Source: Qipengyuania vulgaris (lineage in GTDB: Bacteria; Pseudomonadota; Alphaproteobacteria; Sphingomonadales; Sphingomonadaceae). From it: a stretch of DNA of 64,000 bases. Made by a program: the position numbers and the translations under genes. Positions 28,993 to 36,526 of the stretch are shown piece after piece (position 1 is the first letter of the stretch; each line of letters begins with the position of its first letter). The DNA is taken from the NCBI RefSeq assembly GCF_009827325.1, contig NZ_WTYC01000002.1:124001-188000 (forward strand). The letters are read 5' to 3'. The notes under the pieces are model-generated. The model was not told the DNA's origin and ran no database searches. It saw nothing but the letters and a program-made list of their open reading frames with translations.

Positions 28993-29001
28993 GTGATAGC
29001 A

Positions 29002-29901
29002 ATGTCAAAGCTGCTGTTATGCGGAACAATTATGCTACTGGCTTCGCCTTCGTTAGCCACGCAAGAGTCTGAACCCGTCAATGATCCTGAAACCATTGTA
29101 GTTACCGGACAGCGTCAGGCTGATGTTGAGGCGATACGCGAGGGCATTGATCAGATTTCACCATCTCTCGGTCCGACAGATCCGATTGCACGTTTTATTG
29201 ATCCGATTTGTCTCGACTTTGCAGGACTTAGCCCGTCGCAGGAAGCTACGTTTCGTAAACTTATAACCTTTCGCGGCCAGAATGCCGGAGCACGCTTTGC
29301 GAAGACTGATTGTCGGACGAATGCATTGGTCGTAATCGTCGACGACCCCAAGTCATTCTTAGATGAAGCAAGAGAAAAGCAATCTAACTTAGTGAGCGCG
29401 AGCGACTATCGGAAATTAGAAGCATCGATTGCGGATGGTGATCCTGTAGTTGCAGTGCGTTCACAGGAAGTTCGCACGGCTTTGGGTAGGCCTGCGCCGC
29501 ATACCGCTACGATCCCAGGTTTGACACTCCCCATGGCGGCATCGACAAAGGTCAACACGGACGCGCGTGCGCGCAGGGTAGGCCTCGAACAGAGCGCAGC
29601 CTTAGTTAACTCGATCGTTATCTTTGACGCGACAAAAGTCGCAGGACTTAACCTTGTCCAACTTGCCGACTATGCGGCGATGCGACTGCTGATTTCGAGC
29701 GACGTTAGTCCAGCTTGGCAAGGTGGCCGACCTGATTCCATACTTAAACTATTCTCGAACTCCACAGATGATATTGAATCCTCAATGACGGTGTTCGATG
29801 AATCCTACTTGGCTGCAGTATATGGCCTCCCACTAAATGCTGCGCCTTCCAGACTAAAATCACAGGTATTGGCGGGGTACCTGGAACGATCTCAGAACTA
29901 A
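29002..29901 (+). CDS. Secreted protein of the RiPP cluster, unknown function
   Basis: 299 residues from the ATG at 29002. MSKLLLCGTIMLLASPSLAT is a clear signal peptide. Just after it comes ETIVVTGQRQ, similar to the motif that follows the signal peptide in TonB-dependent receptors of sphingomonads, but no plug or barrel follows. Two cysteines (DPICLDF and KTDCRTN) could form a disulfide. The rest is mixed alpha/beta without a recognised domain. It is 36 bases upstream of the thioredoxin-like gene, so the two are co-transcribed. It might be an export partner, protease or immunity protein of the cluster; unproven. Confidence 0.75.
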   Translation: MSKLLLCGTIMLLASPSLATQESEPVNDPETIVVTGQRQADVEAIREGIDQISPSLGPTDPIARFIDPICLDFAGLSPSQEATFRKLITFRGQNAGARFAKTDCRTNALVVIVDDPKSFLDEAREKQSNLVSASDYRKLEASIADGDPVVAVRSQEVRTALGRPAPHTATIPGLTLPMAASTKVNTDARARRVGLEQSAALVNSIVIFDATKVAGLNLVQLADYAAMRLLISSDVSPAWQGGRPDSILKLFSNSTDDIESSMTVFDESYLAAVYGLPLNAAPSRLKSQVLAGYLERSQN

Positions 29902-29937: not shown

Positions 29938-30282
29938 ATGTCAAAACCGGTGCGTACTTATCGCATGGTGGATCTAGACGAAAGTTTAGCTAGGATCGAA
30001 TTCGCCATCACGGTCTATACTGTTCCGCATTGTGGTAAATGCGACCGTGTCGTTTCTCACCTCGCGGAGACGGATCTTGGTCTCAGCTTCCATCTATTTC
30101 GTTGCTTGATGGATAAACGAGACGCAGGTCAAATGTTCAAAAAGTTGGGCAGCCTAGATCTTCCTATCGTTTCGCTGCATGCCAATGGCAAACTCGTGCA
30201 CATCTCCCCTTACGGTGAGGGGCACAAACTTTTCCAAGCACTGGAACTAATACAAAAAGAAAGGGTCGCCGACTTCACATGA
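29938..30282 (+). CDS. Thioredoxin/glutaredoxin-like protein (CGKC)
   Basis: 114 residues. A glutaredoxin-like fold is suggested by ITVYTVPHCGKCDRVVSHLA, with the redox pair CGKC at about residues 32-35, and by SLDLPIVSLHANGKLVHISP, which has the Pro in the cis-proline position. No signal peptide, so cytoplasmic. It lies beside a RiPP precursor whose core has two cysteines (CGEMC), so control of their oxidation or sulfur chemistry is a natural guess. Its stop codon is inside a strong hairpin terminator shared with the convergent precursor gene. Confidence 0.75.
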   Translation: MSKPVRTYRMVDLDESLARIEFAITVYTVPHCGKCDRVVSHLAETDLGLSFHLFRCLMDKRDAGQMFKKLGSLDLPIVSLHANGKLVHISPYGEGHKLFQALELIQKERVADFT

Positions 30283-30296
30283 AGTTGGCGACCCTT
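30261..30296. terminator. Bidirectional terminator between the redoxin gene and the precursor gene
   Basis: AAGGGTCGCCGACTTC (30261-30276) pairs with GAAGTTGGCGACCCTT (30281-30296), 16 base pairs with one G-U, loop ACAT. It overlaps the stop codon of the plus-strand gene ending at 30282 and lies 17 bases after the stop of the minus-strand precursor gene. Confidence 0.85.
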
Positions 30297-30312: not shown

Positions 30313-30465
30313 TCAGTAGGCTTCAGTATCACACATTTCTCCGCAGCCGTACACTTTTGTATAACGACCGCCCGCGACTTGCTGAAGTTCGTCTTGGGAA
30401 AGCTCCCGGGCCATGCGCCTCTGAGCCAATCTGACGGTAGTGCTTTTTGCTGATTGTTTTGACAT
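30313..30465 (-). CDS. RiPP precursor peptide with double-glycine leader
   Basis: 50-residue peptide from the ATG at 30465, with GGGAGAAGAAG just upstream. It is too short for ordinary gene prediction. The leader starts MSKQSAKSTTVRLAQRRMAR and ends ELSQDELQQVAGG, a classic double-glycine leader. Cleavage after GG would release the 17-residue core RYTKVYGCGEMCDTEAY. The core has acidic side chains (E, D, E), possible partners (Thr, Lys, Thr) for ester or amide cross-links, and two cysteines. It is divergent from an ATP-grasp ligase and a HlyD/C39-transporter pair that could modify and export it. Highly likely to be the substrate of that machinery. Confidence 0.85.
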   Translation of the reverse strand: MSKQSAKSTTVRLAQRRMARELSQDELQQVAGGRYTKVYGCGEMCDTEAY

Positions 30466-30509
30466 AGGCTTCTTCTCCCTAGTTAATGCTCTCTTGGAGC
30501 GGCATACAC

Positions 30510-30583: not shown

Positions 30584-31654
30584 TTGCGGTTACTCATTAT
30601 TTCCCTTCCAATAGATCAACACTCTACAATTGCTGCGTATCATTTATCTGAGATGGGCTTCGATGTGAGGTTTTGGTGTCCTTCAGATCTACCGAAGCGA
30701 ACCACAGCTTCTATATCTATTGGAGGAGGAACCCGCGTATCCTTGGGAGTCCATGGTGACGAACCTGCAGAGACGGTGCTTTTTCGCAAGTGGAGTGGGC
30801 CAGTCCTGCCTGACGATCTTCATCCGGCAGATCGAGATATAGCATCTCGTGAATTCGAACATTTCGGAACTGGGATACTCGATGCTCTGCACCCCGCAGC
30901 ACGCTGGATCAACGCTCCACGTTCGGCACGTATGGCAACAAAGATCCGGCAACTACAGGTTGCCGAAGCTGTTGGGTTCAATATTCCGCGCACCTGCATT
31001 TCAAACAATCCTCAAGATATTCGCGCGTTTGCTGAGGCTGCGAATCAGAAAGTCGTGTTCAAGTCATTCACTCCAGCCGTCTGGGAAGACCTGAGCGAAC
31101 GCCAGTACGTCACCATGACTTCGAGAGCTGATCCAGAGCTGATGTCCGACGATCTCGCGCTCAGCTATTCTCCAGCAATATGGCAAGAGGAAATTGCGAA
31201 GGCTTTTGAGCTTCGGATTACCATGTTCGAAGATGAAGCCGTAACCGTTCGAATCGATAGCCAACGGACTGATCACGGTACGGTAGATTGGCGAGCCGCA
31301 GGACATGATATCCCTGTCGTCGACCACCAACTGGACATAACCAACTACAATCTTTGCCGTGAATTGATGAGAAAGCTGGGTCTGGCCTTTGGAAGCATCG
31401 ACGCGATCGTCGATCATTCAGGAAAGCTCTGGTTCCTTGAGGTAAATCCGGCTGCGCAATTCTTGTGGATTGAGGATATCAACCCCGAGATCAAACTCTT
31501 AGGTCCATTCCTTAGTATGCTAGCCGGAGAGGATGTCCGCGACAGGACACCAACATTGAAGGAAACCTTGGCCGACAGTGCGTATCTCCATTACGAAGCG
31601 GAGTTGCGAGATAGCCATGAACAAGTCATGTCCTCTTTCAAAAGTTATGAGTAG
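30584..31654 (+). CDS. ATP-grasp ligase, MvdD/RimK-like (RiPP maturase)
   Basis: 356 residues from a TTG at 30584, with AAAGGGA seven bases upstream. The ATP-grasp fold is read from KVVFKSFTPAVWEDL (nucleotide-binding Lys), WQEEIAKAFELRITMF, SIDAIVDHSGKLWFLEVNPA (metal-binding Glu and Asn) and QFLWIEDINPEI. The N-terminal part (MRLLIISLPIDQHSTIAAYH, then RKWSGP) matches MvdC/MvdD-type maturases, which form ester or amide cross-links between side chains of a precursor (graspetides). It is 118 bases from the divergent precursor gene and followed after 8 bases by the HlyD gene, so it begins the biosynthesis-export operon. Confidence 0.88.
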   Translation: MRLLIISLPIDQHSTIAAYHLSEMGFDVRFWCPSDLPKRTTASISIGGGTRVSLGVHGDEPAETVLFRKWSGPVLPDDLHPADRDIASREFEHFGTGILDALHPAARWINAPRSARMATKIRQLQVAEAVGFNIPRTCISNNPQDIRAFAEAANQKVVFKSFTPAVWEDLSERQYVTMTSRADPELMSDDLALSYSPAIWQEEIAKAFELRITMFEDEAVTVRIDSQRTDHGTVDWRAAGHDIPVVDHQLDITNYNLCRELMRKLGLAFGSIDAIVDHSGKLWFLEVNPAAQFLWIEDINPEIKLLGPFLSMLAGEDVRDRTPTLKETLADSAYLHYEAELRDSHEQVMSSFKSYE

Positions 31655-31662
31655 GGCAGAAT

Positions 31663-32925
31663 TTGGGCGGGGACGAAACGATTGAACGTTCGGGTCAAAA
31701 CCGAGACACTGGTCTATTTCGCACGGAAGTCTTCGAAGCGCGCAAGGCCAAGAACGACGGCCGCGTCAATTTACTACCGTCAGTCAGCTGGCACGTCATT
31801 ACAGCAATCTTGCTGGGATTGTTTTTAGGAGGCGTAGCGTTCGTAGCACTTGTACCGCTAGCTCGAACGGAAACAGTAGACGGTGTCATCTGGCCTCACG
31901 GAAAACCAGTTTCTTTGGATAGCCCGATTTCCGGAACAATTACCTCCATTTCGGCAGGTGAAGACGATTTAGTCGATGAGGGTGAGTTGCTCGTTACTGT
32001 GGCTGATCGCACCGCTATCGGCTTTGGTGAGGACGCCGCAAAGATTGTTGAGAGAGGAATTGAAGCAAGGCGTTTGTTGGTCGCGAATGAGATGGACGCT
32101 GCGCGGAGAGACAACGAACTCGCTATTTCGGAACGTCGATCGAGGATCGGCGCTCTAATTTCTTCGAAAGCAGCTACACAAAACCAGATTACACGACAGC
32201 TTGAGCTGTTGGCCAGCGCGCGGGAAGATTTCGAGATAGCGCAAACCGTGGCTGTAGGCGGCTTTATCAGTCGCCAAGACTTAGCGAGACGTCAGGAGGC
32301 AGTTCTTGCTCGCGAGCAAGTACTTGCGCAATTGAAGCAGGAGATTGTCGACATCGAATCTCAGATCGCCATTGAAAGGGCCGGTATCAAGCGAGACACC
32401 GAGTCACTGGCAACCCGTCTGGCCTCCTTAGAATCGACGGAAGAAGCCTTCGGTCTGGAAAGCGCTCAAGCAGCCCGAAACTCAAGTGTTGCTCTGCTGG
32501 CGCCGGTTTCGGGAAGAGTTGGAGCGCTGAGACGAACACCCGGGCAGCGGATCGCTGTGGGCGAAGAGATTTTGTTGATTGCCAATGATAAACTCGAATG
32601 GCTGGTCGAGCTCCAGGTACCTTCTAGCGCCATATCGCGTGTCCGCGTAGGAGGCGCCGTAGAGTTACGCGTGGCTTCTCTCCCGTACCAGCAATACGGA
32701 ACCATTGAAGCGACGATAACCAGGATTGCGACAATCCCAGAACAGCGCAGCGATTCAGATGGTTCATCCACTTATTATAGGGTGAACGCCCGCATGAACC
32801 CATCCTCAGAATTAAGTGCCTCCCTGAGCTCAGTACAAGGGCTACCGGTCGAAGTCGTCATGCATATCGGACGTGCGACTATACTCGAACAGATTTTGGC
32901 TGAGCGCACCAGAGTCCAACTATGA
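31663..32925 (+). CDS. HlyD-family periplasmic adaptor
   Basis: 420 residues from a TTG at 31663, the only early start in frame. One transmembrane helix (about 45-68, WHVITAILLGLFLGGVAFVA), then the barrel-sandwich segment SPISGTITSISAGEDDLVDE, a long coiled-coil hairpin (about 135-265), the second half of the lipoyl-like unit (LLAPVSGRVGALRRTPGQRI) and a beta-barrel end. HlyD adaptors link inner-membrane ABC exporters to outer-membrane channels; no TolC is encoded here. It lies between the ATP-grasp and C39-transporter genes. Confidence 0.9.
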   Translation: MGGDETIERSGQNRDTGLFRTEVFEARKAKNDGRVNLLPSVSWHVITAILLGLFLGGVAFVALVPLARTETVDGVIWPHGKPVSLDSPISGTITSISAGEDDLVDEGELLVTVADRTAIGFGEDAAKIVERGIEARRLLVANEMDAARRDNELAISERRSRIGALISSKAATQNQITRQLELLASAREDFEIAQTVAVGGFISRQDLARRQEAVLAREQVLAQLKQEIVDIESQIAIERAGIKRDTESLATRLASLESTEEAFGLESAQAARNSSVALLAPVSGRVGALRRTPGQRIAVGEEILLIANDKLEWLVELQVPSSAISRVRVGGAVELRVASLPYQQYGTIEATITRIATIPEQRSDSDGSSTYYRVNARMNPSSELSASLSSVQGLPVEVVMHIGRATILEQILAERTRVQL

Positions 32926-32938
32926 GCCTCGCGATAAG

Positions 32939-35050
32939 ATGAAGATTGATCTGGGCATTTTCCCCGGCGAGAAAATGAAATTGGTCCGACAAACCGAGAT
33001 GTCGGAATGCGGTCTAGCATGTGTGGCGATGGTTGCGTCTCATTGGGGCGTGGATCTCGATATGGCGAGCCTCCGGCGACGATTTTCCATTTCTCAGCGA
33101 GGGGCAACCATAAACACCCTGATAGTCGTAGCAAATAAGCTCGGTCTTTCGGCACGACCTCTAAAGGTACCCCTAGAAGAGCTCCAGTACGTTCGGTTCC
33201 CTGCCATCCTCCATTGGGACCTCAATCATTACATTGTTATTCAGAAGTTGGAGCGCGGAATAGCTACAATTTTTGACCCGGCGGCATCCATCAAGAAGCT
33301 GACGCTAACTGAACTCTCTGACCACTTTACGGGCATCGCCCTCGAACTCTCTCCTGTCGAAAATTTTCATCAGCCTGAGCCGTCCCCGAGATTGCGCTTT
33401 TCTCAGCTTTGGCGCGGTGTTTCCGGTCTTAAACGGACGCTTTTACAGATTGCGGTACTAACGGTCGTCACACAGGCTTTTATACTACTCTCTCCTTATT
33501 TTCTACAACTTGCTGTTGACCACGTCATACCGGCTTCTGACTTGCCATTCTTGCTAATTTTGAGTCTCGCGTTCGGTATTTTTGCCATAATTTACGCGAT
33601 GTCATCGTTTCTCCGTTCATTTGTATTTTTATCATCAGGAACATTACTTAGCTTCGTCATGGCGAGCAATGTCGGAAGGCAACTCTTCCGACTGCCGGTG
33701 GCCTGGTTTGAGCGCCGCCATGTCGGCGATATTCTTTCGCGTTTTCAATCACTACAACCGATCCAAGACCTTTTGATCAAGGGCTCCGTTGTAACGGCTC
33801 TCGATGGCGTTCTGGCTATCGCGATCCTCATCGTGATGTTTCTTTACAGTGCTCTCCTCGCATCCATCTCTCTTGCCGCCTTTTTACTTTACCTATTAGT
33901 ACGCTTGGTTCTGTTCCGGTTTGAGCGGAGGGCAACTGAAACCGCCATAGCGATGCGGGCGAAAGAGCAGTCGACATTGATAGAAAGCATCGACGGGATT
34001 GTACCGTTGCGCCTCTCAAGTAAGGAAAGTGCACGTTTTTCGTTATGGCAGAACAAGTTAAATGATAGTTTGAACGCCGATGTATCCGAAGAACGAGTAC
34101 GCATCTGGCAGGAAACTTCGAATATCCTTATCCTACAATTAGAGACCATTATTGTCGTTGCGTTTGCGATAAGCTTTGTTCTCAACGAGCAATTTTCTGT
34201 GGGAATGGTGTTTGCTTACTTGGCTTACAAAACGCAGTTTTTACAAAGTGCCTCCAAACTCGTCGACAAATTCATCGAGTTTCGGATGCTCGGTCTCCAT
34301 CTTGAGCGGATCTCGGATATCGCCCTAGCGACAAGAGATATCAGCTTCGACTATCCGGGAAATGATGAAAACAAACTGAAGGGAGCTATTGCCCTAAATG
34401 ACGTTGATTTTAGATTTTCGGATGCCGATCCTCTAGTCCTAAATTCGGTTTCACTATGTGTCGCGTCAGGCGAGCACGTGGCAATCAAGGGGCCGTCGGG
34501 GGGCGGCAAATCGACATTGGCTAAAATTCTGCTCGGCCTCCTTGAACCGACATCCGGAGATGTCACAGTCGACGGCGTGCCAATCCGCGATTTCGGCTAC
34601 CAGCAATACCACGACAGTGTCGCTGCTGTGCTTCAGGACGATGTTCTGTTTTCCGGATCGATTGCCGAGAATATCGCTCTATTCGAACCCGGCGCAGACC
34701 TAGATAGAATCCGCGAAGCCGCTAAGGCTGCAGCTATCTCGGATGACATCGAAAAAATGCCGATGAAGTACGAAACGTTCGTCACTGAAAGGGGCTCCAA
34801 CCTCTCGGGCGGGCAAAGACAGAGACTCTTGCTTGCGCGCGCGCTCTTTCGCAATCCCCGCCTGCTACTGCTGGATGAGGGGACCTCAAGCTTGGACACT
34901 TGGCATGAGCGTAAAATCAACGAGGCAATTAGAACGCTTCGAATCACTAGAATCGTCATCGCCCATCGGCAGGAAACCATTGATCAGGCGAATAGAGTAT
35001 TCGAAATGAAAGACGGCTCACTCACTGAAATAGCGCCAAGTCCCCGCTAA
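32939..35050 (+). CDS. C39-peptidase ABC transporter (PCAT)
   Basis: 703 residues from the ATG at 32939, 13 bases after the HlyD stop; an ATG at 32975 is an alternative. The N-terminal C39 protease has its Cys in EMSECGLACVAMVA (residue 24), His in LHWDLNHYIVI (97) and Asp in TIFDPA (113), so it should be active; it cuts leaders after double glycine. Then come a six-helix membrane domain and an ATPase: Walker A GPSGGGKST, signature LSGGQRQR, Walker B LLLLDEGTSSLD. It would cut the leader of the peptide at 30313 after VAGG and export the core. Confidence 0.93.
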   Translation: MKIDLGIFPGEKMKLVRQTEMSECGLACVAMVASHWGVDLDMASLRRRFSISQRGATINTLIVVANKLGLSARPLKVPLEELQYVRFPAILHWDLNHYIVIQKLERGIATIFDPAASIKKLTLTELSDHFTGIALELSPVENFHQPEPSPRLRFSQLWRGVSGLKRTLLQIAVLTVVTQAFILLSPYFLQLAVDHVIPASDLPFLLILSLAFGIFAIIYAMSSFLRSFVFLSSGTLLSFVMASNVGRQLFRLPVAWFERRHVGDILSRFQSLQPIQDLLIKGSVVTALDGVLAIAILIVMFLYSALLASISLAAFLLYLLVRLVLFRFERRATETAIAMRAKEQSTLIESIDGIVPLRLSSKESARFSLWQNKLNDSLNADVSEERVRIWQETSNILILQLETIIVVAFAISFVLNEQFSVGMVFAYLAYKTQFLQSASKLVDKFIEFRMLGLHLERISDIALATRDISFDYPGNDENKLKGAIALNDVDFRFSDADPLVLNSVSLCVASGEHVAIKGPSGGGKSTLAKILLGLLEPTSGDVTVDGVPIRDFGYQQYHDSVAAVLQDDVLFSGSIAENIALFEPGADLDRIREAAKAAAISDDIEKMPMKYETFVTERGSNLSGGQRQRLLLARALFRNPRLLLLDEGTSSLDTWHERKINEAIRTLRITRIVIAHRQETIDQANRVFEMKDGSLTEIAPSPR

Positions 35051-35232: not shown

Positions 35233-36444
35233 TTAGGCAATAATCGCGGTATACTCCTGACCGTTCACTGTGCCAGAGCAGTAAGCGCCCCATGCTTCCA
35301 TCAGTTTCACCCGCGCCCCCGGCTTTTGCTTAGTTCCTAAATACGTTGTGCGGCGATAAGCAGCTTGCACAGCATCGGGCGTCTTGTGCGCCAGGGCGGC
35401 CTCGACCACGGGATTGGGGAAGCCTTCATTTGCTGCCCAGTCCGTGAAGGCAGAGCGAAAGCCATGGACGTGAAAGGGTTCCTGCATGTCGCGCAGCACC
35501 TTGAGCAGTGTCATGTCGGACATCGCTTTGCCCGTTGCCCCAGAAAATACTACTTCAGCCCCCTCGACGCGGAACGCATCCGCCTTCGCGAGGACTCCCA
35601 GTGCGGCCTTGGAGAGCGGGACCACATGTGCCTTACTTCGTTTCATGTGTTCGGCGGGGATCGTCCAAAGGCGTTCTTCCAGATCGAATTCTTCCCACTT
35701 GGCGAGTCGGATCTCCTGCGAGCGCGTGCCGGTCAGGATAAGGAGATCGAGCGCGAAACGTCCGAAGGATGGCTTGCGCCTCAGTGCGGTCAGAAACGAA
35801 GGAATGGCGACATAGGGCATCGCTTTGCGGTTCTGGGTTTTCTTGATCTGCCGTGGCAGGCCCCTCCCTGCTTTCAGGCTACTATTGCCCGATGGCGCTT
35901 CGGTCGACCGCCAGCCTTTGGCATGCGCATAGTCCAGCACGGCGCAAATCCGATTGCGAACCTGGCGCGCGGTTTCAGGGATTTCCTGCCAAATCGGCGT
36001 GAGTACATCGATGATGTCAGTTGCGGCGATACTGCCAGTCGGCATGTCACCAAGCTTGGGGAAAGCATAGTTCTCCAGACTGGCGAACCACTGGCGCGCG
36101 TAGACGGCGCTCTTCCAGCCCGCCTCGTTTTCGGAGTGATACTGTGTGGCGGCTTCGCGGAAGGTCACCTTGGCGGCCGCCTCGTCCCTGCGCTCAGTGA
36201 GAACATCGCGCTTTTCGATCTTCACGGCCTTGCGCAGTTCGTTGGCTTTCTCGCGGGCCTGCGCCAGTGTGACCAGCTTTGCGCTCCCCACTCCGATGTC
36301 TCGTCGCTTCCCGTCTTGCTGGAGTCGGAGCAGCCATGAAGCCGAGCCGGTTTTCCCAACTTTGAGAAAAAGACCGTCACCATCCTGATACGTGCCGGGA
36401 TTCGCTAAAGCTGCCTTTACCGCTACCGCCGTGAGCTTGCCCAT
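35233..36444 (-). CDS. Tyrosine-type integrase of the island (DUF4102 type)
   Basis: 403 residues from the ATG at 36444 (MGKLTAVAVKAALANPG); a longer start at 36513 is poor. The N-terminal DUF4102 arm-binding domain (GDGLFLKVGKTGSASWLLRL) is followed by a SAM-like core-binding domain and the catalytic domain: Arg in LILTGTRSQEIRLAKWEE, H-x-x-R in FHVHGFRSAFTDWA and LAHKTPDAVQAAYRRTTYLG with the nucleophilic Tyr in the closing part. P4/CP4-57-like integrases of this kind insert into the 3' end of tRNA genes. tRNA-Tyr is 207 bases away, so it is the recombinase for the island. Confidence 0.93.
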   Translation of the reverse strand: MGKLTAVAVKAALANPGTYQDGDGLFLKVGKTGSASWLLRLQQDGKRRDIGVGSAKLVTLAQAREKANELRKAVKIEKRDVLTERRDEAAAKVTFREAATQYHSENEAGWKSAVYARQWFASLENYAFPKLGDMPTGSIAATDIIDVLTPIWQEIPETARQVRNRICAVLDYAHAKGWRSTEAPSGNSSLKAGRGLPRQIKKTQNRKAMPYVAIPSFLTALRRKPSFGRFALDLLILTGTRSQEIRLAKWEEFDLEERLWTIPAEHMKRSKAHVVPLSKAALGVLAKADAFRVEGAEVVFSGATGKAMSDMTLLKVLRDMQEPFHVHGFRSAFTDWAANEGFPNPVVEAALAHKTPDAVQAAYRRTTYLGTKQKPGARVKLMEAWGAYCSGTVNGQEYTAIIA

Positions 36445-36446
36445 TT

Positions 36447-36526
36447 CCTTCCCCACATTTCCGCAGGCCGTTCCGGAAAATACAAGTGTGGGGAAGAGTG
36501 TATCTTTCCCCACACCTTCCCCACAC
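36447..36526. repeat. TCCCCACA motifs upstream of the integrase
   Basis: TCCCCACAC occurs at 36507-36515 and 36518-36526, TTCCCCACA-type sequence near 36449, and an inverted copy AGTGTGGGGAAG at 36485-36496. The same motif is repeated at the far island end (14627, 14639). They are candidates for integrase arm-type sites or autoregulation sites. Confidence 0.4.

What the first reader, a model, noticed from the sequence alone, without database searches (positions are those of the whole stretch)
30313..30465. An unannotated 50-codon gene encodes a likely RiPP precursor with a double-glycine leader
Seen directly: minus-strand ATG at 30465 with a strong ribosome binding site, leader ending ELSQDELQQVAGG, core RYTKVYGCGEMCDTEAY, stop at 30313. 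The leader end matches the known double-glycine leaders of peptide exporters. The core combines acidic residues with Thr and Lys, which suits graspetide cross-linking, and has a Cys pair. I do not know a described family with this core.
Basis: partly seen in the sequence, partly recalled or inferred. Interest (0 to 1): 0.92.

Follow-up and report, generated by a model that had tools for sequence, protein, structure and literature searches.

The report
New graspetide-type peptide gene cluster
A tiny gene in a bacterium of the Sphingomonas family most likely encodes a short peptide that a neighbouring ATP-using enzyme ties into rings and a neighbouring transporter trims and exports; it looks like an undescribed member of a known class of ring-forming bacterial peptides.

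Summary
The 50-codon gene (30465 to 30313, minus) is real: in a species of the same genus (G422) the neighbourhood recurs and the 17-residue core is identical although 13 of its 17 codons differ, all silently. In the more distant Sphingosinicella sp. LHD-64 a short gene in the same divergent position ends in HFTKVLGLGEMGDWVNP (here RYTKVYGCGEMCDTEAY): candidate ring-formers Thr, Lys, Glu and Asp are kept, both Cys are lost. The neighbour enzyme is a graspetide-type ATP-grasp ligase, followed by HlyD and a C39 transporter. New here: the leader belongs to a shared leader type. A profile of it gave 12 hits within 500 nt of ATP-grasp genes, in 10 of 36 further loci, and none among 5036 small ORFs farther away (E <= 0.5; at E <= 5, 13 and 1). 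A glutaredoxin-like gene goes with the two Cys-containing versions, not the third. I expect one Thr lactone and one Lys lactam, possibly with a disulfide. Ring formation is inferred, not shown. New member of a known kind.

The parts
30313..30465 (-). precursor peptide gene, 50 aa
   Evidence: coding constraint against G422; homologue in Sphingosinicella
30367..30465 (-). leader, 33 aa; its last 22 residues RLAQRRMARELSQDELQQVAGG fit a leader type found beside other ATP-grasp genes
30316..30366 (-). predicted core, RYTKVYGCGEMCDTEAY (17 aa)
   Evidence: identical in G422; T, K, V, G, G, E, M, D kept in Sphingosinicella
30475..30480 (-). Shine-Dalgarno-like AGGGAG, 9 nt before the ATG
   Evidence: seen in the sequence
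30254..30295 (-). terminator-like hairpin (AGGGTCGCC..GGCGACCCT) and T-run after the precursor; overlaps the 3' end of the convergent glutaredoxin-like ORF
   Evidence: RNA fold of the surrounding 100 nt, -37.9 kcal/mol; the consensus scan found no terminator-like site there
30584..31654 (+). graspetide-type ATP-grasp ligase, 356 aa, divergent from the precursor
   Evidence: TIGR04187 E 2.3e-45, TIGR04185 1.7e-40, TIGR04184 3.2e-40, each below its cut-off; PDB relatives 5ig8, 7m4s, 5ig9, 7mgv, 9bou, 7drm
31663..32925 (+). HlyD-type periplasmic adaptor
   Evidence: PF13437 E 3.1e-17
32939..35050 (+). C39 peptidase-containing ABC transporter (ORF open from GTG 32873; ATG 32939 judged likelier)
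   Evidence: PF03412 E 3.8e-33; best NCBIfam model TIGR03796 E 4.2e-142, below its cut-off
29938..30282 (+). glutaredoxin-like protein with CGKC, convergent with the precursor
   Evidence: TIGR02196 E 5e-6 and PF00462 E 2.5e-4, both below cut-off; kept in G422; none found in the Sphingosinicella locus (phmmer E <= 1e-5)
28993..29901 (+). 302-aa protein, signal-like N-terminus by eye, no Pfam or NCBIfam match at E <= 1; in all three close clusters
   Evidence: relatives elsewhere in the bacterial family
35233..36513 (-). tyrosine integrase, suggests a mobile island
   Evidence: PF00589, PF22022, PF13356
36651..36736 (-). tRNA-Tyr beside the integrase

Best explanation
The gene encodes a graspetide-type RiPP precursor. 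Proposed pathway: (1) the precursor is transcribed divergently from the enzyme operon and ends at its own hairpin (arrangement seen; separate transcription inferred). (2) The ATP-grasp ligase binds the leader block around RLAQRRMARELS (inferred from motif conservation and the microviridin precedent). (3) It phosphorylates side-chain carboxylates of the core, and Thr3 and Lys4 attack Glu10 and Asp13 to give one lactone and one lactam; which pairs with which is open (inferred: of the Ser/Thr/Lys donors and Asp/Glu acceptors in the core only these four are in all three versions). (4) The C39 domain cuts after the double glycine and the ABC/HlyD pair exports the 17-residue product (inferred from domains). 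(5) In the two Cys-containing versions Cys8 and Cys12 may form a disulfide, the neighbouring glutaredoxin-like protein handling the thiols (speculative). The target is unknown; protease inhibition is the precedent in the class (PMC8939145, Background).
For: Purifying selection on the frame, complete on the core. Between window and G422 the core (100%) is better conserved than the ATP-grasp (73%), 302-aa (66%), HlyD (58%) and glutaredoxin-like (56%) proteins; the C39 gene was not compared. Eight of 17 core residues are kept in Sphingosinicella, reached by 0 of 1,000,000 shuffles. Six distinct PDB sequences match the ligase at E <= 0.01, named ATP grasp ligase (two), AMdnB, CdnC, MvdD-like and ATP-grasp domain-containing protein; that 5ig8/5ig9 are microviridin ligases and 7drm a plesiocin ligase is recalled. 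The three ligases form a clade with local support 0.995. Leader-profile hits at E <= 0.5 in 36 loci not used to build the profile: 12 among 448 small ORFs within 500 nt of an ATP-grasp gene, 0 among 5036 farther away.
Against: No chemical evidence. The ligase scores below every NCBIfam curated cut-off (155 bits against 350 for TIGR04187), so the class rests on homology. The leader has no proline and so lacks the 'Phhx(1,2)h' motif that PMC8939145 reports in about half of precursors. The close subfamily was found in three genomes only. Sphingosinicella has GK instead of GG at the cut site and no HlyD or C39 gene found in the locus, so step 4 does not carry over there as drawn; C39 matches exist elsewhere in that genome. 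Structure prediction of the ligase failed (mean pLDDT 37.1). No glutaredoxin-like gene was found in the other leader-type loci, several of which have Cys in the core (single query, E <= 1e-5).
Confidence: 0.82

Rival explanations
1. An unmodified or differently modified double-glycine peptide (microcin-like or signalling) exported by the C39 transporter; the ATP-grasp enzyme does something other than side-chain cross-linking, such as adding an amino acid or joining the ends.
For: The leader end weakly resembles generic GG leaders (TIGR01847 14.9 bits against a cut-off of 15.7, PF10439 14.2 against 27.1). ATP-grasp ligases of nearby kinds add residues or cyclise head to tail (PMC8939145 Background).
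Against: The ligase's best models are graspetide maturases and its solved relatives include AMdnB and CdnC; T, K, E, D of the core are kept where much else drifts; ligase and precursor occur together in all three clusters.
Confidence: 0.12
2. The ORF is a chance reading frame between divergent genes.
For: It is short, and the mechanical ORF list holds many of this size in the region.
Against: 33 synonymous against 5 non-synonymous changes, with an unchanged core; homologue in a third genome.
Confidence: 0.01
3. The glutaredoxin-like protein and the 302-aa protein are bystanders of the island, not part of the pathway.
For: The 302-aa family has many other members: in 13 further fetched loci with a member no ATP-grasp match was found; three ABC-type matches to the C39 query appeared in two of them (L118, L122) and were not examined. 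No glutaredoxin-like gene was found in the Sphingosinicella locus.
Against: The 302-aa gene is in 3 of 3 close clusters and directly follows the ligase in Sphingosinicella; the glutaredoxin-like gene goes with the Cys pair (two with both, one with neither).
Confidence: 0.5

Closest known systems
Graspetides of the microviridin type (MdnB/MdnC, AMdnB, CdnC ligases)
   Same: Related ATP-grasp ligase (PDB 5ig8, 5ig9, 7m4s, 7mgv); short precursor beside it; core with Thr and Lys donors and Glu/Asp acceptors, so a lactone and a lactam are possible; ARxL in the leader resembles part of PFFARFL.
   Different: One ligase gene in the cluster, not two; no PFFARFL; core lacks the microviridin TxKxPSD pattern (pattern recalled) and has adjacent T-K and E-x-x-D.
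Graspetide groups with an NHLM-type peptidase transporter (groups 2, 8, 14, 16, 18, 20, 21, 23 in PMC13097080), e.g. rosaritide of group 21
   Same: TIGR04187-like ligase and TIGR03796-like peptidase transporter; predicted transporter cut site.
   Different: Rosaritide has three Ser/Thr donors, three Asp acceptors and a PpiC-like partner protein; here a Thr-Lys pair and a glutaredoxin-like and a 302-aa protein. Whether the present clade already lies in a published group could not be checked (supplementary tables could not be opened).
Class II / IIc bacteriocins with double-glycine leader (PF10439)
   Same: GG leader end and C39 exporter.
   Different: Far below the family cut-off (14.2 against 27.1 bits); an ATP-grasp ligase next door.

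Membership tests
Graspetide (RiPP class) | ATP-grasp ligase of the graspetide-synthetase lineage in the cluster | tested here: met
   TIGR04187 2.3e-45, TIGR04185 1.7e-40, TIGR04184 3.2e-40, all below curated cut-offs; PDB 5ig8 3.6e-39
Graspetide (RiPP class) | short precursor gene with leader and core beside the ligase, conserved with it | tested here: met
   G422 and Sphingosinicella
Graspetide (RiPP class) | core with nucleophile (Ser/Thr/Lys) and carboxylate (Asp/Glu) residues, conserved | tested here: met
   T, K, E, D invariant in 3 of 3
Graspetide (RiPP class) | side-chain lactone or lactam actually formed | not testable with these tools
   needs mass spectrometry or NMR
Graspetide (RiPP class) | leader 'Phhx(1,2)h' motif (reported in about half of precursors, PMC8939145, so not defining) | tested here: not met
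   no proline in the leader; a different shared leader type is present
Microviridin family (group 1) | PFFARFL leader and TxKxPSD-type core (core pattern recalled) | tested here: not met
   sequence of P0001
Double-glycine / C39-exported peptides | GG leader end and C39 peptidase transporter in the cluster | tested here: met
   window and G422; in Sphingosinicella GK and no C39 found in the locus
Class IIc bacteriocin (PF10439) | score above the curated cut-off | tested here: not met
   14.2 against 27.1 bits

The most novel reading that the evidence does not exclude
A compact graspetide whose adjacent Thr-Lys pair and E-x-x-D pair form a lactone and a lactam in one 17-residue peptide that is then locked by a Cys8-Cys12 disulfide under the care of a dedicated glutaredoxin-like protein: a mixed ester/amide/disulfide tricycle. 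It would stand for an uncatalogued proteobacterial graspetide branch recognised by a 22-residue leader of the form R-V-L-x-R-x-L-A-R-x-L-x-x-x-E-x-x-x-V-A-G-G.
Probability: 0.2. Interest if true: 0.65.

Novelty: new member of a known kind. Interest (0 to 1): 0.46.

Why it matters
It gives a minimal test case for graspetide chemistry (one ligase, two donors and two acceptors conserved, 17 residues) and a leader profile with which small precursor genes can be located beside ATP-grasp genes in Proteobacteria. None of the other leader-type precursors tested scored above a family cut-off (7 in NCBIfam; 5 in Pfam), nor did this one. PMC8939145 reports that for its branches 4, 6, 7 and 8 few or no precursors could be predicted, so a working leader profile has practical use.

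Tried and rejected
Chance ORF: rejected by the substitution pattern. Antisense 51-aa plus-strand ORF: no ATG and an early stop in G422. Weak precursor-model hits elsewhere: in the family search 15 of 397 genomes had a hit at E <= 0.05; only G000 and G297 are strong, and the other 13 (E 0.0077 to 0.045) were treated as noise, three of them after a look at a filtered ORF list. In the genus search 5 of 60 had a hit: G000 and G422 strong; G439 (E 4.5e-6) lies antisense to a 271-aa ORF, and G439 had no ATP-grasp match, so it was rejected; G417 and G410 (E 0.02 to 0.03) were treated as noise. Viral contigs: the core pattern hits 7 contigs, 7 of 7 with one conserved stretch of what looks like another protein, without such a leader; the ligase scan (two short patterns) gave one 30% relative. 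Plasmids: no match for the precursor at E <= 5; 73 records with a ligase relative, all under 60% identity, the two top rows at 33% and 35%. Structure prediction was poor for the 302-aa protein (mean pLDDT 50.9) and the ligase (37.1), so no fold search was made. No second copy of the tRNA-Tyr end was found in the window, so the far end of the island is not defined. The genome-contig scan used two peptide patterns from the first quarter of the ligase and returned one relative, so it says little about distribution.

Full report
Observation. A strong hairpin with a T-run follows it (-37.9 kcal/mol for the 100 nt around), although the simple terminator scan found none.

It is a real gene. The search of 60 genomes of the genus found one further species, G422, with the close ATP-grasp, on a 6.3-kb contig that holds the 302-aa protein, glutaredoxin-like protein, precursor (minus strand), ATP-grasp, HlyD and the first part of the C39 transporter (L043). 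Against G422 the precursor has 114 of 153 nucleotides identical. Over 50 codons there are 33 synonymous and 5 non-synonymous differences; in the 17-codon core 13 and none. Of the 38 differences 30 are at codon position 3 (P about 1e-8). As a control the five other frames were counted: four show more non-synonymous than synonymous changes, and one reverse frame, whose third positions nearly coincide, shows 24 against 9, still a weaker signal than the true frame. Synonymous sites are saturated, so no ratio is quoted. The same comparison gives 73% amino-acid identity for the ATP-grasp, 66% for the 302-aa protein, 58% for HlyD and 56% for the glutaredoxin-like protein; the core is the best kept of the sequences compared (C39 was not compared).

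A third, more distant copy. Its ATP-grasp is 42-45% identical to the window's and is followed by the 302-aa homologue. Divergent from it is a 55-codon ORF, MTESGVSFGVESKSESRIASRLLARELTVEDVSRVSGK|HFTKVLGLGEMGDWVNP. Eight of 17 core positions match the window core (T, K, V, G, G, E, M, D), a number not reached in 1,000,000 shuffles. Both cysteines are gone and the cut site reads GK. No HlyD, C39 or glutaredoxin-like gene was found in the fetched 16.8 kb (phmmer with the window proteins, E <= 1e-5, ORFs of 141-149 aa not included); C39 matches exist elsewhere in that genome. Of Ser/Thr/Lys and Asp/Glu residues in the cores, exactly Thr3, Lys4, Glu10 and Asp13 are present in all three. This is the best evidence for which residues are joined.

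The enzyme. The ATP-grasp matches graspetide maturase models (TIGR04187 2.3e-45, TIGR04185 1.7e-40, TIGR04184 3.2e-40, TIGR04192 5e-22), each below its curated cut-off. By sequence six distinct PDB sequences match at E <= 0.01: 5ig8, 7m4s, 5ig9, 7mgv, 9bou and 7drm. The listing names AMdnB, CdnC and an MvdD-like protein; that 5ig8 and 5ig9 are microviridin ligases and 7drm a plesiocin ligase is recalled. In a FastTree tree of fetched ATP-grasps (42 sequences before short and duplicate ones were dropped) the window, G422 and Sphingosinicella form a clade with local support 0.995. The C39 domain is well supported (PF03412 3.8e-33); the best transporter model is the NHLM-type exporter TIGR03796, again below cut-off.

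The leader type. Seven leaders were made into a profile: those of the three precursors, of a small GG ORF beside a distant ATP-grasp on a Bradyrhizobium sp. CB82 plasmid (L049), and of three tandem small ORFs on a Legionella adelaidensis plasmid, where an ATP-grasp, a 348-aa protein, HlyD and a C39 transporter follow (L050). Searched against small ORFs (24-140 aa) of 36 other ATP-grasp loci, the profile gave 12 hits at E <= 0.5 within 500 nt of an ATP-grasp (448 small ORFs there, those overlapping the ATP-grasp left out) and none among 5036 farther away; at E <= 5 the numbers are 13 and 1. Ten of the 36 loci have such a hit at E <= 0.5 and 26 have none. The loci are not all independent: L020, L047 and L048 hold what looks like the same enzyme, L028-L030 are near-identical, and L081 and L082 overlap. 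Seventeen leaders were then aligned without gaps over the last 22 residues: the seven of the profile plus ten picked by hand, one of them weak (L075, E 5.7); hits in L032, L033, L034, L083, L087 and L088 were left out. The clear columns are R 13, R 13, A 14, R/K 17, L 15, E 14, V/I 17, G 17 and, last, G 12 of 17; one Legionella leader is out of register by one. The ARxL part recalls PFFARFL of microviridin leaders, which PMC8939145 describes as the element that activates the ligase. None of the leader-type precursors tested scored above a Pfam or NCBIfam cut-off.

Distribution. ATP-grasp matches of any closeness, own or centre genome included: 16 of 397 genomes of the family (E <= 1e-10), 4 of 60 of the genus (E <= 1e-20; G415 and G421 only through a different ATP-grasp), 4 of 385 of the class (E <= 1e-20), 3 of 26 of the genus of G297 (E <= 1e-30), 15 of 396 of the order (E <= 1e-30), 1 of 254 of the family in a second draw (E <= 1e-45). 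The draws overlap. The close subfamily with this core was seen in three genomes: G000, G422, G297. The cluster lies near a tyrosine integrase and a tRNA-Tyr, so patchiness through mobility is plausible.

Mechanism. Shown: the gene, its conservation, its divergent placement, the domain content. Inferred: leader binding by the ATP-grasp, phosphorylation of Glu10/Asp13, attack by Thr3/Lys4 to give a lactone and a lactam, C39 cleavage after GG and export. Speculative: a Cys8-Cys12 disulfide with the glutaredoxin-like protein. For the last, the pattern is two clusters with both Cys pair and glutaredoxin-like gene and one with neither; but other leader-type loci with Cys in the core showed no such gene in a single-query search. 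The 302-aa protein belongs to a family with other copies in these bacteria; in 13 further loci no ATP-grasp match was found near it, so its role is open.

What is known. PMC8939145: abstract, Background, the two Results sections on precursors and on unexplored loci, and search passages were read. PMC13097080: abstract, Introduction, the sections on co-occurrence and on rosaritide, and search passages. PMC12291112: search passages only. Other papers: search listings only. Supplementary tables could not be opened, so I cannot say that this clade is absent from them. In the main text of PMC8939145 words beginning 'Sphing', 'Alphaproteobacteria' and 'glutaredoxin' do not occur; in that of PMC13097080 'Pseudomonadota', 'disulfide' and 'glutaredoxin' do not occur. 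In the rows shown by five literature searches (several lists were capped, e.g. 15 of 459) I saw no title or abstract start about a graspetide from this bacterial order; only open-licence papers are held. Hence 'new member of a known kind', with a core pattern I did not find described.

Noticed in passing
L050:7328-13336 (Legionella adelaidensis plasmid 26): Three tandem small GG-leader genes upstream of an ATP-grasp, a 348-aa protein, HlyD and a C39 transporter: a distant relative of the window cluster with three different cores.
   Followed up: partly
L020:8118-9278 (own genome, C11), also L047 and L048: A second graspetide-type ATP-grasp in the same genome, with matches in G415 and G421, followed by a 338-aa protein and with a 265-aa ORF (Fic-like by eye) upstream; no GG precursor recognised beside it by the scripts.
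   Followed up: partly
L075, L076, L077, L080, L084 (families f177 and f178 of the same order): Genomes with up to five ATP-grasp matches (G847) and several leader-type small ORFs with very different cores; L075 has four such ORFs (one weak) around two ATP-grasp genes.
   Followed up: partly
L117:7142-11257 (G422 C203): Four tandem copies of the 302-aa protein family; no ATP-grasp or C39 match in that 18-kb locus.
   Followed up: partly
L043:5979-6298: In G422 the C39 transporter reading frame ends early and a transposase-like ORF (by eye) runs to the contig end, so the transporter is either interrupted or the contig was cut there.
   Followed up: no
window:19168-26984: Large minus-strand genes that resemble defence functions by eye (SMC-like ATPase, NTPase with a restriction-type domain, helicase) near the peptide cluster and the integrase.
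   Followed up: no
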